Origin: Flavobacteriaceae bacterium UJ101
GTDB taxonomy: Bacteria; Bacteroidota; Bacteroidia; Flavobacteriales; UJ101
Assembly (NCBI GenBank): GCA_001880285.1
Contig: CP016269.1
Span: forward strand, 1,932,501-1,996,500
Reading direction: 5' to 3'
DNA: 64,000 nt
This document shows positions 9,091 to 14,676 of the stretch, in pieces (within the stretch, counting starts at the first letter, position 1; each line of letters starts with the position of its first letter). The translations under genes and the position numbers were made by a program. Below the pieces are notes generated by a model that had not been told where the DNA came from, did no database searches, and worked only from the letters and a program-made list of their open reading frames with translations.

Positions 9091-9125
9091 AAAATCCTAA
9101 TCTTAATTGATTAGGATTTTCTTTT
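9091..9125. terminator. Bidirectional terminator between accC and the metal repressor
   Basis: A perfect 12-bp stem, AAAATCCTAATC (9091-9102) with GATTAGGATTTT (9109-9120), has a TTAATT loop and T-runs on both strands. It serves accC (+) and the convergent dtxR-family gene (-). Confidence 0.85.
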
Positions 9126-9814
9126 TATTTTGAAATTAATTCTACAAAAACATTTTCTGCAAATTTCTGAGAAACGGTTTCTACTTTCCCATCGAAGGCA
9201 ATTTGTAGTGTGTGATCAAATTTAAAAACATCTTGAACTGTAATTTCTGAACTTAAGATTAATCCTAGTTTAGATACATATTGTAAAAAAGCGATGGAAT
9301 TATCATTTACAGCTACTATTCTACAAGTGTCATGTATCTGTAATTCGGAGAGTTTTAATTTTTTTAGCGTTGCATAATCTCCATCTTGCCCAGGAATAAT
9401 ATCACCATGAGGATCTTTTTTAGGATATCCCATAAAGCGATCCAATTCATCAATTAATTTTTGAGATTTCACATGTTCTAATTGTTCTGCCACTTCATGA
9501 ACTTCGTCCCATGTAAAATTCATGTATTTATATAAAAAAGTTTCCCAAAGACGGTGTTTACGAATAAGGTTTAATGCAATGGCTCTTCCTTCAGTTGTTA
9601 ACTCTAATTTTCCGTAGCGCTCACTTAAAACCCATTGTTTGCTCTTCAATTTTTTAACCATATTATTTACCGAAGCTGGAGATAAAGATAAAAAATCGGC
9701 TAATTGATTGTTCCCAACCTTGTTGTTTAAGTCGCTAGAAGTAAGATGAAATAAGGCTTTTAAATAATCTTCTTCACTTTTTGTTATGTTTGTAGTATTT
9801 AATTTGTTAGTCAT
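9125..9814 (-). CDS. DtxR/MntR-family metal-dependent transcriptional repressor
   Basis: A 229-aa metalloregulator. It has an N-terminal winged helix (about 10-80; LADFLSLSPASVNNMVKKL is the recognition region), a metal-binding/dimerisation domain (about 81-150) and a C-terminal SH3/FeoA-like domain (about 155-229). Candidate ligands are D16, H87, E110, E113 and H114, resembling the MntR set. An in-frame start 60 nt further upstream exists, but it would lie close to the gene's own -7 element, so I chose 9814, giving MTNKLNTTNITKSEEDY. It diverges from the transporter genes and very likely represses them when metal is plentiful; Mn versus Fe specificity is inferred. Confidence 0.9.
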   Translation of the reverse strand: MTNKLNTTNITKSEEDYLKALFHLTSSDLNNKVGNNQLADFLSLSPASVNNMVKKLKSKQWVLSERYGKLELTTEGRAIALNLIRKHRLWETFLYKYMNFTWDEVHEVAEQLEHVKSQKLIDELDRFMGYPKKDPHGDIIPGQDGDYATLKKLKLSELQIHDTCRIVAVNDNSIAFLQYVSKLGLILSSEITVQDVFKFDHTLQIAFDGKVETVSQKFAENVFVELISK

Positions 9815-9834
9815 AACTAACTTTATTATTTTTG
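9803..9834 (+). promoter_or_regulatory. Promoter and putative metal-repressor operator of the ABC-transporter operon
   Basis: TTTG (9803-9806), a 20-nt spacer and TATTTTTG (9827-9834) form an excellent Bacteroidota promoter. The spacer is occupied by the dyad GTTAGT-CATA-ACTAAC (9806-9821), a perfect 6-bp inverted repeat. The same dyad covers the start codon of the divergent repressor gene (9812-9814). Its symmetry and position suit a DtxR/MntR-type operator; that the adjacent repressor binds it is inferred. Confidence 0.7.
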
Positions 9835-9853
9835 TGTCATTAAAATTTAACAA

Positions 9854-9861
9854 CAAATATA
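9854..9861 (-). promoter_or_regulatory. -7 element of the metal-repressor gene
   Basis: The plus-strand CAAATATA reads TATATTTG on the minus strand, placing transcription about 30-35 nt upstream of the repressor ATG at 9814. The operator dyad would then lie inside the transcribed leader and start codon. Confidence 0.55.
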
Positions 9862-9878: not shown

Positions 9879-10670
9879 ATGAGAACTCACTTGGTGAAAG
9901 GTTTATTAATTAGCGTATCAATGTTTTCTATGTATGTAAAAGGACAGGAATATGAGGGATATGGAACTATCATTACAGATCGTCCAGATCAGACGGAATC
10001 TCCTAGTATAGTACCAAAAGGATTTCTTCAAGTAGAAACAGGAGCTTTTTATACGGAAAATGAAGAAGAAGGAGTAAAAAATGAAATCATGACTTATAAT
10101 ACAACGTTGTTGCGTTATGGGATCTCGAAAAATATGGAGTTAAGGCTGGGATTAAATTATGATGAAGATAAAACGAAGTTTAATGGAAGAGAAATAGCGA
10201 AGTCAAGTGGCTTTTCTCCATTGTACGCAGGTTTTAAAATACATGTAGTAGAAGAAAAAGGAATTGTACCACAAATTGGTTTCTTAGGAGGACTAATCCT
10301 TCCTTTTACAGCAGCAGAAGCTTTTAAACCTGAAAAAACAGGATTTACAGGACGTTTTGCATTTACTCATACGCTAAGTGATCGATCTAGTTTATCGTAT
10401 AATTTAGGAGCAGAATGGAATGGAGATGAGACAGGAGCAACCTATCAATATACAGCGGTTTATGGGTATAGTTTTACAGATAAATGGGGTGGATTTGTTG
10501 AAGTGTATGGAGATCTACCAGAAGATAGAACAGCTACTCATTATTGGGATTGTGGTGTAACCTATCTTTTAAAAGATAATATACAATTGGATGTTTCGGG
10601 TGGAACTGGATTTGGAAATGAACAAAATGTATATATAAGTGGAGGTGTAAGTTTTAGATTACCAAAATAA
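9879..10670 (+). CDS. Outer-membrane beta-barrel protein (phenol-degradation MetA-like family), first gene of the metal-uptake operon
   Basis: A 263-aa predicted outer-membrane protein with an N-terminal signal peptide (VKGLLISVSMFSMYVKGQ) and then ITDRPDQTESPSIVPKGFLQVETG. That opening is typical of the barrel family often annotated as MetA-pathway phenol degradation or simply 'transporter'. Alternating hydrophobic/polar strands rich in Tyr, Phe and Gly run to the C-terminal ISGGVSFRL. I chose 9879 because earlier in-frame starts overlap the promoter. It lies 7 bp before the substrate-binding protein gene and under the putative metal operator, so a role as an outer-membrane metal channel is plausible but inferred. 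Confidence 0.8.
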   Translation: MRTHLVKGLLISVSMFSMYVKGQEYEGYGTIITDRPDQTESPSIVPKGFLQVETGAFYTENEEEGVKNEIMTYNTTLLRYGISKNMELRLGLNYDEDKTKFNGREIAKSSGFSPLYAGFKIHVVEEKGIVPQIGFLGGLILPFTAAEAFKPEKTGFTGRFAFTHTLSDRSSLSYNLGAEWNGDETGATYQYTAVYGYSFTDKWGGFVEVYGDLPEDRTATHYWDCGVTYLLKDNIQLDVSGGTGFGNEQNVYISGGVSFRLPK

Positions 10671-10677
10671 TAAAAAG

Positions 10678-11592
10678 ATGAAAAAGTATATTCTATTAGG
10701 AGTAATGAGTTTATTTTTAGCAAGTTGTCAAAATAAGCAGCAATCAAATTCAGGGAAATTGAACGTCGTAACGACGACAACTATGTTAACTGATTTAGTA
10801 AAAAATATAGGAGGTGATGTTATTTCTGTTGAAGGATTGATGGGAAGTGGAGTAGATCCACATTTGTATAAAGCAAGTGAAGGGGATGTTACCAAATTAT
10901 TTAATGCAGATGTTGTATTTTACAACGGATTGCATTTAGAAGGGAAATTGGAAGATGTTTTTGAAAAAATGAAACATCAAAACAAAATAACCATTCCGGT
11001 AAGTGATACAATCAATAAAAAAGAATTAATTTCTTCAGAGGCATTTGCTTCAAATTATGATCCACATATTTGGTTTAACATTGAAAATTGGAAACAAATT
11101 ACACAATATGTAGTTAATCAATTGAAAAAAGAAGATCCTAAGAATGCTTCTGTTTTTGAAGAAAATGGTAAGAAATACTTAAAAAAATTAGAAGAATTAG
11201 AGGGAGAGATTCGAACAGAGATTAATAAATTACCAGAAGAACAACGTATTTTAGTTACAGCGCATGATGCCTTTAATTATTTTGGGAAAGCATATCATTT
11301 TAATGTTGTAGGTTTGCAAGGTTTATCAACGGCCACAGAAGCAGGGGTTCGTGATGTACAAAAATTATCAGACTTTATTATAAAAAATAAGGTGAAAGCC
11401 ATTTTTGTAGAAAGTTCAGTTCCTAAAAGAACAATAGAAGCATTGCAAAAAGCAGTTGAATCAAAAGGGAATAAAGTAGCTATAGGAGGAACTTTATATT
11501 CAGATGCTTTAGGAGATTCAGGTACTATTGAAGGGACGTATTTAGGAATGTATCGATATAACACTAAAACAATTGTAGAGGCATTAAAATAA
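10678..11592 (+). CDS. Manganese/zinc-type ABC transporter substrate-binding lipoprotein
   Basis: A cluster A-I (ZnuA/TroA/PsaA-like) metal-binding protein of 304 aa. The lipobox LFLASC puts the lipidated cysteine at C17, so it is anchored facing the periplasm. Candidate metal ligands are H62 (VDPHLYK), H130 (YDPHIWF), E245 (VESSVP) and D276 (LYSDAL). This His-His-Glu-Asp set, and the lack of the His-rich loop seen in ZnuA, favour manganese over zinc. It is second in the five-gene operon after the barrel gene and is followed 30 bp later by the ATPase. Confidence 0.92.
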   Translation: MKKYILLGVMSLFLASCQNKQQSNSGKLNVVTTTTMLTDLVKNIGGDVISVEGLMGSGVDPHLYKASEGDVTKLFNADVVFYNGLHLEGKLEDVFEKMKHQNKITIPVSDTINKKELISSEAFASNYDPHIWFNIENWKQITQYVVNQLKKEDPKNASVFEENGKKYLKKLEELEGEIRTEINKLPEEQRILVTAHDAFNYFGKAYHFNVVGLQGLSTATEAGVRDVQKLSDFIIKNKVKAIFVESSVPKRTIEALQKAVESKGNKVAIGGTLYSDALGDSGTIEGTYLGMYRYNTKTIVEALK

Positions 11593-11622: not shown

Positions 11623-12363
11623 ATGACTCAAGAAAAAATAGCCATACAAGTAGATGATTTAACTGTTGCGTATAAATACAAACCTGTTTTATGGGATATT
11701 GATTTGAGAATTCCTGAAGGTGTGTTGATGGCCATTGTAGGACCAAACGGGGCAGGAAAATCCACTTTGATTAAATCTATATTAGGTATTATAACACCTA
11801 TTGCAGGTAGTGTGAAAATATACGATAAATCGTATAAAGAACAGCGAAAGTTAGTAGCTTACGTTCCACAAAAGGGAAGTGTTGATTGGGATTTTCCTAC
11901 AACCGCTTTAGATGTAGTTATGATGGGTACATATGGTTCTTTAGGGTGGATTAAAAGACCGGGTCAAAAAGAGAAAAAAATAGCATTGGAAGCATTAGAA
12001 AAAGTAGGAATGTTACCTTTCAAGAATAGACAAATTAGTCAATTGTCAGGAGGACAGCAACAGCGTATTTTTTTAGCAAGAGCCTTGGTGCAAAATGCTT
12101 CAATCTACTTTATGGATGAGCCTTTTCAAGGAGTTGATGCTACTACAGAAAAAGCTATAATTAACATTTTAAAAGAATTACGTAAAGCTGGGAAAACAGT
12201 AATTGTTGTACATCATGATTTACAAACAGTGCCTGAATACTTTGATTGGGTTACCTTTTTGAATGTTAAAAAAATAGCTACGGGACCTGTAGCGACTATT
12301 TTTAATGATGATAATTTAACCAAAACCTATGGTATTAATTATAAGGTGAGTATCCAACAATAA
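11623..12363 (+). CDS. Metal ABC transporter ATP-binding protein
   Basis: The 246-aa cytoplasmic ATPase of the metal importer. It has Walker [10 protein letters not shown], the Q-loop in [13 protein letters not shown], the ABC signature LSGGQQQR, Walker B SIYFMDEP and the switch histidine in VVHHDL. The VDWDFP segment after the Q-loop is typical of the Mn/Zn/Fe chelate (MntB/TroB/ZnuC) branch. It lies between the substrate-binding protein and two permeases with short gaps, so the operon is complete. Confidence 0.94.
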
Positions 12364-12392: not shown

Positions 12393-13523
12393 ATGTCCAT
12401 AACCGATTATATAGAATTAATTTTTACCGATTATACTTTACGGACGATAACATTAGGAACAGCTGTGTTAGGAGCCATTTGTGGAATGTTAGGAAGTTTT
12501 GCTGTATTGCGTAAACAAAGCTTATTAGGTGATGCTATTTCCCATGCAGCATTACCAGGTATAGCCATTGCTTTTTTAGTTACAGGAACCAAAAATGGAA
12601 ATGTATTATTGGTAGGTGCTTTAATTAGTGGCTTAGTAGGCGCCTTTTGGATTCGTGGAATTACACGAAATACCCATCTTAAATCGGATACCGCTTTAGG
12701 GATTATTTTGTCTGTGTTTTTTGGGTTTGGGATGTTACTCTTAACGTTTATTCAAAAACAACCCAATGCCAATCAAGCAGGATTGGATAAATATCTTTTT
12801 GGACAAGCAGCAACACTGATGGAAAAAGATGTGATGATGATGAGTATTGTCATGGGAATATGTTTGATTGTTCTTTTTGTTTTTTGGAAAGAATTTAAAC
12901 TATTGCTTTTTGATGCTGATTATACCAAAACATTAGGCTTTAATATTCAATTTTTAGATATTTTAATTACGTCATTTATTGTGTTGGCTATTGTATTAGG
13001 TTTACAAACAGTAGGTGTCGTGTTAATGAGTGCGATGTTATTAGCTCCGGCAGCAGCAGCTCGACAATGGACGAATAGCTTAGGGATGATGGTTTTTCTA
13101 GCAGCTATTTTTGGTGCTTTTTCAGGTGTTTTTGGAACATGGATTAGTGCAAGTTCCAATCATCTATCAACAGGGCCTGTAATCGTTTTAGTAGCATCTG
13201 TTTTTGTATTGTTTTCCTTTGTTTTTTCACCGAGTAGAGGTTTATTATTTAGAGAGATTCGCTTTATTCAAAATCGTAATGATTTAGAATTACATAAAAC
13301 GTTAACCTTTATGTATCATATAGCAATGGATCATGAAAATCGATCGCATCCACATGCTATAAAAATTTTAAATAATTTTCATGGATTTTCAAGAAAATCA
13401 TTAAGAAAATTAGAAAATAAAGATTGGGTGAAAGTAGAAGGCCAAATGTGGTCTCTAACGGAAAAAGGATATTATGAAGCAGAAAATTTATATAATCAAT
13501 TAAATCAAAACCAAGATGACTAA
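12393..13523 (+). CDS. Metal ABC transporter permease with C-terminal winged-helix-like tail
   Basis: A 376-aa ABC-3 family (ZnuB/TroC-like) permease. The first 285 or so residues contain about eight to nine hydrophobic segments with the family motifs LGDAISHAALPGIAIAF and LMSAMLLAPAAAARQW. Beyond the usual end, residues about 292-376 form a soluble tail (SRKSLRKLENKDWVKVEG, then WSLTEKGYYEAENL). This looks like the helix-turn-helix and wing of DtxR-type regulators and resembles the neighbouring repressor's N-terminus. It overlaps the next permease gene by 8 bp, suggesting translational coupling. Confidence 0.9.
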   Translation: MSITDYIELIFTDYTLRTITLGTAVLGAICGMLGSFAVLRKQSLLGDAISHAALPGIAIAFLVTGTKNGNVLLVGALISGLVGAFWIRGITRNTHLKSDTALGIILSVFFGFGMLLLTFIQKQPNANQAGLDKYLFGQAATLMEKDVMMMSIVMGICLIVLFVFWKEFKLLLFDADYTKTLGFNIQFLDILITSFIVLAIVLGLQTVGVVLMSAMLLAPAAAARQWTNSLGMMVFLAAIFGAFSGVFGTWISASSNHLSTGPVIVLVASVFVLFSFVFSPSRGLLFREIRFIQNRNDLELHKTLTFMYHIAMDHENRSHPHAIKILNNFHGFSRKSLRKLENKDWVKVEGQMWSLTEKGYYEAENLYNQLNQNQDD

Positions 13524-14676
13524 TGCTCAAATTGAAATACAATTAGTGGCTAGTTTAGTAGCAATTGCTTGTGCTATACCAGGAACTTTCTTGGTTTTAA
13601 GAAAAATGGCATTAATTAGTGATGCGATTAGTCATTCTATTTTACCAGGAATTGTAATAGGTTTTTTTCTAACTCATGATTTAAATTCTCCATGGCTTAT
13701 TATTTTTGCGGCTCTTTTTGGAGTCATAACTGTAGTATTGGTTGAGTTTATTCAAAAAACAGGGTTAGTTAAGGAAGATACGGCTATAGGATTGGTTTTT
13801 CCTGCTTTATTTAGTATTGGGGTTATTATGATTGCTAAAAATGCCAATGATGTTCATTTAGATGTAGATGCTGTTCTATTGGGAGAATTGGCCTTTACAC
13901 CTTTTGATCGATTGATTATGAATGAAGTAGATTTAGGACCTAAATCGTTATGGGTTGTAGGAAGTATTTTAATGATGACACTTATTTTATTAATTACGTT
14001 TTTTAAAGAATTGAAACTAAGCACATTTGATGTTGGTTTATCTTCTGCTTTAGGTTTTTCACCTGTAGTGATTCATTATGGTTTGATGACCGTGGCTTCT
14101 GTAACAACTGTTGGAGCATTTGATTCTGTTGGAGCTATTTTAGTGGTTGCTTTAATGATTGCACCTGCTGCAACGGCTTATTTGTTAACAGATAATTTGA
14201 AGAAAATGATTGTTTTAGCAATACTTTTTGGAGTATTTTCTGCTATTTCAGGTTATTGGATGGCCCATTTTTTAGATGCTTCCATTGCAGGATCTATGAC
14301 TACCGTTTTAGGAATCCTTTTTTTACTGGTATATTTATTGGCTCCCAATAGAGGACTATTTTCTGTTTTATACCGTCAAAAACAACAACGTATTGAAGTC
14401 TCGATGTTAACTTTTTTATTGCATTTATCTAATCATAATGAAGAAGAAGAACGGCATGTAAACCACTTAAGAGAACATATCAATTGGCAAAAGGTTCAAG
14501 CACAATCTGTATTAGATTTAGCATTAAAAAACAATATGATATCGATTGATAACGAGGTAGTTTCATTAACAAGAAAAGGAAAAGAATTTACAGCAGAAGC
14601 CATTGATTATATTTTAGATGATAAAAAAGCAGCTATTGAAACGATGAAATCACGATTCTTTTTATTTAGAGGTTAA
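13516..14676 (+). CDS. Second metal ABC transporter permease, also with a winged-helix-like tail
   Basis: A 386-aa ABC-3 family permease with the motifs LISDAISHSILPGIVIGF and VALMIAPAATAYLL; it presumably pairs with the preceding permease as a heterodimer. Residues about 288-386 form a second soluble tail. It runs through MLTFLLHLSNHNEEEERHV, QSVLDLALKNNMISIDN and VSLTRKGKEFTAEAI, again fitting a helix-rich segment followed by a wing and LTxKG motif. It ends the operon, its last 15 bp overlapping the convergent gene on the minus strand. No terminator was seen between them. Confidence 0.9.
   Translation: MTNAQIEIQLVASLVAIACAIPGTFLVLRKMALISDAISHSILPGIVIGFFLTHDLNSPWLIIFAALFGVITVVLVEFIQKTGLVKEDTAIGLVFPALFSIGVIMIAKNANDVHLDVDAVLLGELAFTPFDRLIMNEVDLGPKSLWVVGSILMMTLILLITFFKELKLSTFDVGLSSALGFSPVVIHYGLMTVASVTTVGAFDSVGAILVVALMIAPAATAYLLTDNLKKMIVLAILFGVFSAISGYWMAHFLDASIAGSMTTVLGILFLLVYLLAPNRGLFSVLYRQKQQRIEVSMLTFLLHLSNHNEEEERHVNHLREHINWQKVQAQSVLDLALKNNMISIDNEVVSLTRKGKEFTAEAIDYILDDKKAAIETMKSRFFLFRG

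What the first reader, a model, noticed from the sequence alone, without database searches (positions are those of the whole stretch)
9803..9861. Operator dyad placed between -33 and -7 of the metal-uptake promoter and over the repressor start codon
GTTAGT-CATA-ACTAAC (9806-9821) lies exactly in the 20-nt spacer of a TTTG/TATTTTTG promoter for the barrel-ABC operon. It also overlaps the ATG of the divergent DtxR/MntR-type repressor, whose -7 element is about 40 nt further up (9854-9861). One site could therefore block the transporter promoter and act as a roadblock or translational block on the repressor itself. Positions and symmetry are seen in the sequence; binding is inferred. The dyad is shorter than classical DtxR/MntR boxes but has the same TTAG/CTAA character.
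Basis: partly seen in the sequence, partly recalled or inferred. Interest (0 to 1): 0.62.

Follow-up and report, generated by a model that had tools for sequence, protein, structure and literature searches.

The report
Metal-repressor operator over repressor start codon
A short mirror-image DNA site, very probably where a metal-sensing repressor binds, sits inside the promoter of a metal-uptake operon and also across the start codon of the repressor's own gene, and it is kept almost unchanged in dozens of related bacteria.

Summary
In detail: GTTAGTCATAACTAAC (9806-9821) fills the 20-nt spacer between TTTG (9803-9806) and TATTTTTG (9827-9834) and covers the ATG (9814-9812, minus strand) of a DtxR/MntR-like gene. 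It is conserved: of 52 Aquimarina orthologues, 51 keep GTTAG-N6-CTAAC at the identical place and one has a single change; 49 of 53 (window included) keep the whole TTTG-N20-TAnnTTTG promoter. The constraint is on DNA: Asn3 is AAC in 53 of 53, against 108 of 556 Asn codons further on, and A. intermedia keeps the dyad although its ATG reads TAG. Distant homologues carry TTTAG-N6-CTAAA, the same spacing and the frame of one IdeR/DtxR dimer. So it is a one-dimer DtxR-family operator with GTTAG instead of TTTAG half-sites. Most likely metal-loaded (Mn) repressor shuts the uptake promoter from within its spacer. Control of its own gene is less certain: an elongation roadblock, or the predicted mRNA hairpin with AUG in its loop. 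The layout has a published analogue in another family (C.Kpn2I). New variant of a known kind; binding is untested.

The parts
9806..9821 (.). Operator dyad GTTAGTCATAACTAAC (core TTAG-N6-CTAA, one-dimer size)
   Evidence: Sequence; exact core at the same place in 51 of 52 Aquimarina orthologues
9803..9806 (+). -33 box TTTG of the uptake-operon promoter
   Evidence: Sequence; TTTG in 52 of 53 rows; consensus recalled
9827..9834 (+). -7 box TATTTTTG of the uptake-operon promoter
   Evidence: Sequence; TAnnTTTG in 50 of 53 rows, both boxes with 20-nt spacer in 49 of 53
9854..9861 (-). Putative -7 box TATATTTG of the repressor gene; no -33 box seen
   Evidence: TAnnTTTG at -75..-22 in 51 of 53 rows, shuffled rate 0.13; TTG at the -33 spacing in only 1 of 53
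9125..9814 (-). DtxR/MntR-like metal-dependent repressor, 229 aa, three domains (HTH, dimerisation/metal, FeoA-like)
   Evidence: Pfam PF01325, PF02742, PF04023; all NCBIfam equivalogs below cut-off
9879..10670 (+). Outer-membrane barrel-like protein (PF13557), first gene of the operon
10678..11592 (+). Metal-binding lipoprotein of the ABC importer (ZnuA/MntC-like, PF01297)
11623..12363 (+). ATPase of the importer
   Evidence: best NCBIfam matches are Mn/Fe importers, below cut-off
12393..13523 (+). ABC-3 permease
13516..14676 (+). ABC-3 permease

Best explanation
The dyad is the operator of the adjacent DtxR/MntR-family repressor, sized for one dimer (TTAG-N6-CTAA, one half per winged helix). 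Metal-loaded repressor, most likely with Mn(II), sits between the -33 and -7 boxes of the uptake promoter and shuts out RNA polymerase, so the importer is made only when the metal is scarce. The same dimer lies across the start codon of its own gene, about 27-42 nt after that gene's inferred start of transcription, so it should leave that promoter's core free and act as a brake on elongation (negative feedback). Shown: sequence, geometry, DNA-level conservation, spacing shared with homologues. Inferred: binding, the metal, repression, the start sites and the brake.
For: GTTAG-N6-CTAAC at the identical place in 51 of 52 Aquimarina orthologues, 1 of 52 with one change. Uptake promoter with 20-nt spacer in 49 of 53 rows. 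Asn3 AAC in 53 of 53 against 108 of 556 later Asn codons; neighbouring Asn columns AAC in 1 of 50 and 1 of 52. Dyad kept in L117 (A. intermedia contig) where ATG reads TAG, and in L112 where it reads TTG. Among 98 order-level homologues 62 have an exact TTAG-N6-CTAA upstream. IdeR: 19-bp two-dimer box and proposed 14-bp one-dimer consensus TTAGGNNNNCCTAA (PMC8464063 passages). Repressor residues D16, E110, E113, H114 match the Mn site of B. subtilis MntR as listed in PMC4805248. Divergent ABC importer.
Against: No binding data. 36 of 98 order-level homologues have no exact N6 site (19 of these carry an N18 form). Only one exact operator outside an ORF in the genome, so no second target supports it. 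The repressor's own promoter lacks a -33 box, so its start site and the +27 to +42 position are uncertain. NCBIfam MntR cut-offs are not reached, so the metal is uncertain.
Confidence: 0.85

Rival explanations
1. The dyad acts mainly in RNA: GUUAGU-UAUG-ACUAAC folds with the AUG in its loop and damps translation of the repressor, without any protein on the DNA.
For: Predicted hairpin core probability 0.94 in the window, median 0.70 in 53 rows. In F. johnsoniae structure near the start lowers translation and A at -3 and -6 raises it (PMC6847099 passages); the dyad fixes G-3 and U-6.
Against: Probability falls to 0 in some rows. The arms never change together, so no compensatory support. The dyad is kept in L117, which has lost the ATG in the loop. 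Homologous TTTAG-N6-CTAAA sites lie in the upstream promoter region, not at the start codon. It does not explain the fixed 20-nt promoter spacing. Can act alongside the DNA role.
Confidence: 0.06
2. The operator belongs to another regulator (for example a Fur-family or unknown repressor), not to the adjacent DtxR-like protein.
For: No binding data; the genome may hold other metal regulators, which were not surveyed.
Against: TTAG-N6-CTAA is the DtxR/IdeR frame; homologous repressors have the same core upstream of their own genes; half-site type follows the repressor's helix type (54 of 54 exact G..C with Asn42, 62 of 62 exact T..A with Thr/Ser42), though on few independent branches.
Confidence: 0.06
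3. The conservation only reflects conserved protein sequence Met-Thr-Asn-Lys at the N-terminus.
For: Half of the dyad lies in codons 1-3; Thr2 in 52 of 53, Asn3 in 53 of 53.
Against: The GTTAG arm is outside the gene and as conserved; synonymous AAC is fixed; TAG in L117 removes the coding reason.
Confidence: 0.02

Closest known systems
DtxR/IdeR operators: 19-bp TTAGGTTAGSCTAACCTAA, one-dimer 14-bp TTAGGNNNNCCTAA (PMC8464063, passages read)
   Same: Same TTAG-N6-CTAA core and dimer spacing
   Different: Single-dimer size only; inner base after TTAG is T/C, not G; outer base pair G..C; lies over the repressor's own start codon
C.Kpn2I controller protein of a restriction-modification system (PMC6237814, abstract read)
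   Same: One site inhibits a divergent promoter and lies in the regulator's own coding region, where it stalls RNA polymerase; divergent promoters overlap
   Different: Unrelated protein family and function; there the roadblock was shown by experiment, here it is inferred
MntR/TroR-type repressors with Mn ABC importers (PgMntR PMC4805248 and TroR PMC2628430, passages read)
   Same: DtxR-family repressor controlling a metal importer; Asp/Glu/Glu/His Mn-type ligands; C-terminal FeoA/SH3-like domain
   Different: PgMntR has Cys at the second ligand and twin FeoA domains, and its paper maps no short operator in the passages read; TroR's 18-bp dyad lies upstream of troA
TTTAG-N6-CTAAA sites upstream of order-level homologues (found here)
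   Same: Same core and spacing, same gene family
   Different: Half-site T..A; 57-82 nt before codon 12 in most; upstream of the repressor's -7 box rather than downstream of it

Membership tests
DtxR-family operator | Inverted TTAG/CTAA halves with 6-bp spacing (one-dimer frame) | tested here: met
   frame from PMC8464063
DtxR-family operator | 19-bp two-dimer box | tested here: not met
   Only one TTAG-N6-CTAA copy at the site; not required for a one-dimer site
DtxR-family operator | Overlaps promoter of a metal-uptake gene | tested here: met
   (promoter by consensus only)
DtxR-family operator | Metal-dependent binding by the repressor | not testable with these tools
   Needs EMSA or footprint
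DtxR family (protein) | N-terminal HTH and metal-binding/dimerisation domains | tested here: met
   PF01325 E 1.4e-9, PF02742 E 6.1e-30, PF04023 E 1.8e-11
MntR | Mn-type primary ligands Asp, Glu, Glu, His | tested here: met
   D16, E110, E113, H114; ligand set from PMC4805248; alignment of positions to MntR made by eye
MntR | NCBIfam MntR equivalog cut-offs | tested here: not met
   134.3 against 350 (NF047407), 64.2 against 138 (NF003025), 41.6 against 153 (NF008273); so described as MntR-like, not filed as MntR
Roadblock autoregulation (as C.Kpn2I) | Site lies in or before the regulator's own coding region, downstream of its start of transcription | tested here: inconclusive
   Site overlaps codons 1-3; start of transcription only inferred from a -7 box

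The most novel reading that the evidence does not exclude
One dimer site does several jobs: it shuts an uptake promoter from inside its spacer, stalls transcription of the repressor's own gene from over its start codon, and as RNA holds the start codon in a hairpin loop. It arose in one clade when the repressor's promoter came to lie on the other side of the operator (in 51 of 59 T-type homologues a repressor -7 box lies downstream of the operator, mostly 24-29 nt away; here it lies upstream), together with a switch of half-site from TTTAG to GTTAG and of recognition-helix residue 42 (IdeR-style number) from Thr/Ser to Asn.
Probability: 0.3. Interest if true: 0.62.

Novelty: new variant of a known kind. 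Interest (0 to 1): 0.5.

Why it matters
It gives a metal regulator of the Bacteroidota a precise, testable operator; my searches of an open-licence library showed no operator described for this family in flavobacteria. It suggests a half-site code (GTTAG with Asn42, TTTAG with Thr/Ser42) that could help annotate metal regulons across the phylum. It is also a clean natural case in which a gene's start is held by a DNA-binding site: a synonymous codon, the translation context and in one species even the ATG yield to the operator.

Tried and rejected
Genome-wide regulon: GTTAG-N6-CTAAC is at about chance level in the own genome (2, control 3) and in 9 Aquimarina genomes (1 to 5 each, controls 1 to 12); I did not check whether the other copies recur before the same gene. 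The second own copy lies inside an ORF. No regulon is claimed.

Half-site/helix covariation as proof: of 158 homologues, all 54 with an exact G..C N6 site have Asn42 and all 62 with an exact T..A site have Thr/Ser42; 2 have other end letters and 40 no exact N6 site, among them 5 with Asn42 and neither an N6 nor an N18 site (L061, L062, L063, L085, L189) and 16 with Thr/Ser42. On a tree with the helix columns masked both traits change only twice, and there are only 1 (supported) to 2 independent pairs (quick tree of 117 rows, 10 of the 52 Aquimarina rows given). Not significant; kept as a hypothesis. PMC8464063 also reports that Gln43 contacts are not needed for IdeR binding.

Coding-only explanation: rejected. 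Winged-helix reading of the permease tails: no confident match. Same-genus and same-family searches around the window's own genome: it is alone in the held set.

Rows set aside: L028 (39% identity) and the set L017-L027, which overlaps the 52, were not counted in the 53 rows; 14 of 66 genomes of the Aquimarina genus set had no match at E <= 1e-40 and were not followed up; the two paralogues L125 and L126 were counted apart from the 52.

Full report
Observation. The sequence shows all the elements at the stated places. TTTG 9803-9806 and TATTTTTG 9827-9834 are separated by 20 nt, and the dyad GTTAGTCATAACTAAC occupies 9806-9821, sharing its first G with TTTG. On the other strand it covers codons 1-3 of a 229-aa DtxR-family protein. 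A pattern of dyad plus promoter occurs once in the window and never in 100 shuffles at up to 3 mismatches; because that pattern was written from this site and its relatives, it describes rather than tests. The dyad alone is at chance level in window and genome.

Conservation. A scan of genome contigs gave 12 relatives; 11 are 63-67% identical (10 Aquimarina records and one Flavobacteriaceae isolate) and the twelfth 39%. In all 11, GTTAG-N6-CTAAC spans the start region. The genus of the A. litoralis genome gave orthologues in 52 of 66 genomes, and I read all 52 (L073-L124). 51 of 52 have the exact core at the same distance from codon 12; L085 has GTAAG. Over 53 rows with the window, GTTAG is exact in 52 and CTAAC in 53, while the two bases before the ATG vary (position -2: C 32, T 19, G 2; position -1: T 34, C 19). 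The complete uptake promoter TTTG-N20-TAnnTTTG stands in 49 of 53; the exceptions are L075, L103, L112 and L116.

DNA, not protein. Asn3 is AAC in 53 of 53, though Asn is AAC in only 108 of 556 codons further on in the gene; neighbouring Asn columns use AAC in 1 of 50 and 1 of 52. Start codons at the dyad are ATG 51, TTG 1 (L112), TAG 1 (L117, same contig as L024, A. intermedia). In L117 an in-frame ATG follows 18 nt further on. The operator is kept where the start codon is not.

Wider family. Of 148 genomes drawn from the order, 99 (own included) have a homologue at E <= 1e-20. I examined the upstream DNA of the other 98. Exact TTAG-N6-CTAA: 59 of T..A type, 1 A..A, 1 T..T, 1 G..C (L192); none in 36. 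Of those 36, 19 share the helix MPSVN[N/S]M and all 19 carry GTTAG-N18-CTAAC. L167 and L168 have little upstream sequence. In the 59 T-type loci a TAnnTTTG towards the repressor lies downstream of the operator in 51, and a divergent CAAAnnTA lies within 20 nt on the other side in only 16. So in most homologues the operator is upstream of the repressor's -7 box, whereas in the window clade the -7 box lies on the other side and the operator is at the start codon. In two Aquimarina genomes a second paralogue (39% and 46% identity) has a T-type operator (L125, L126), so both kinds can coexist in a cell. The nearest non-Aquimarina relatives (54-55%) give GTTAG-N6-CTAAC in 2 of 5 (L059, L060), upstream of the start, and no exact site in L061, L062 and L063.

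Published frame. In IdeR each subunit reads one CCTAA repeat, two dimers bind the 19-bp box, and binding of a single dimer led the authors to propose TTAGGNNNNCCTAA (PMC8464063, passages read). That frame is TTAG-N6-CTAA, the core found here. The paper also reports that Gln43 base contacts are not needed, a warning against reading the Asn42/Asn43 correlation as direct contact.

Metal. The repressor has D16, H87, E91, H106, E110, E113 and H114. Asp/Glu/Glu/His match the Mn-specific set of B. subtilis MntR as given in PMC4805248 (passages). All 52 Aquimarina orthologues have Asp16; of the other 106 homologues aligned 102 have Asn and 4 Asp. Mn(II) is the best guess, Fe(II) and Zn(II) stay open; the importer's Mn, Fe and Zn models all match below cut-off.

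Mechanism. Inferred start sites (about 7 nt after each -7 box, a recalled rule) are near 9841 for uptake and 9847 for the repressor, pointing through each other, so two polymerases could not sit there together. A dimer on 9806-9821 lies between -33 and -7 of the uptake promoter: a direct block. For the repressor transcript it lies at about +27 to +42, outside the promoter core, so a brake on elongation is the natural reading. C.Kpn2I is a worked example of this logic: it inhibits a divergent promoter, its site lies in its own coding region, and it stalls polymerase (PMC6237814, abstract). The RNA form of the dyad can hold the AUG in a loop (core probability 0.94 in the window, median 0.70, lowest 0), and the dyad fixes G-3 and U-6 where A is favourable in F. 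johnsoniae (PMC6847099, passages). Both would keep repressor synthesis low.

What varies. The operon's first gene is exchangeable in Aquimarina: barrel in 16 of 52, SBP or ATPase without a barrel hit in 20 of 52, none of these within 1.5 kb in 16 of 52. The first genes of L074 and L077, 2 of these 16, are TonB-dependent receptors by Pfam; the other 14 were only looked at by eye in their first 90 residues. Promoter and operator stay while the outer-membrane partner changes.

Limits. The tight evidence comes from one clade plus the window; there are no binding data; start sites are inferred; the Bacteroidota promoter consensus is recalled. Paper searches covered an open-licence library only.

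Noticed in passing
Upstream of the repressor in L058, L128-L130, L134-L136, L144, L146, L148, L150, L155, L164, L166, L168, L180, L182, L187, L188: One clade of homologues (helix MPSVN[N/S]M) carries GTTAG-N18-CTAAC in 19 of 19, that is the same half-sites 12 bp further apart; too wide for one dimer of the usual kind, unexplained.
   Followed up: partly
L074, L077 (Aquimarina) and window 9879-10670: Under the same conserved operator the first uptake gene is a barrel (PF13557), a binding protein, or a TonB-dependent receptor, which hints that the barrel is an outer-membrane metal channel.
   Followed up: partly
L031 659-3644: A T-type homologue sits between a ZIP transporter gene and a divergent TonB-dependent receptor; other T-type loci (e.g. 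L030, L035, L125, L126) also have a receptor-like divergent ORF by eye.
   Followed up: partly
window 13218-13520 and 14353-14673: Both ABC-3 permeases carry about 100-residue C-terminal tails with no confident Pfam or PDB sequence match; the first has only weak winged-helix hits.
   Followed up: partly
L125 and L126 against L119 and L102 (same genomes G416, G421): Two DtxR-family paralogues in one genome, one with a GTTAG and one with a TTTAG operator, suggesting two insulated regulons.
   Followed up: no
G000 (whole genome of the window): The genome is alone in its genus and family in the held set, yet its repressor is far closer to Aquimarina (63-67%) than to the order-level homologues drawn (32-46%, up to 55%); kinship or transfer was not tested.
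   Followed up: no
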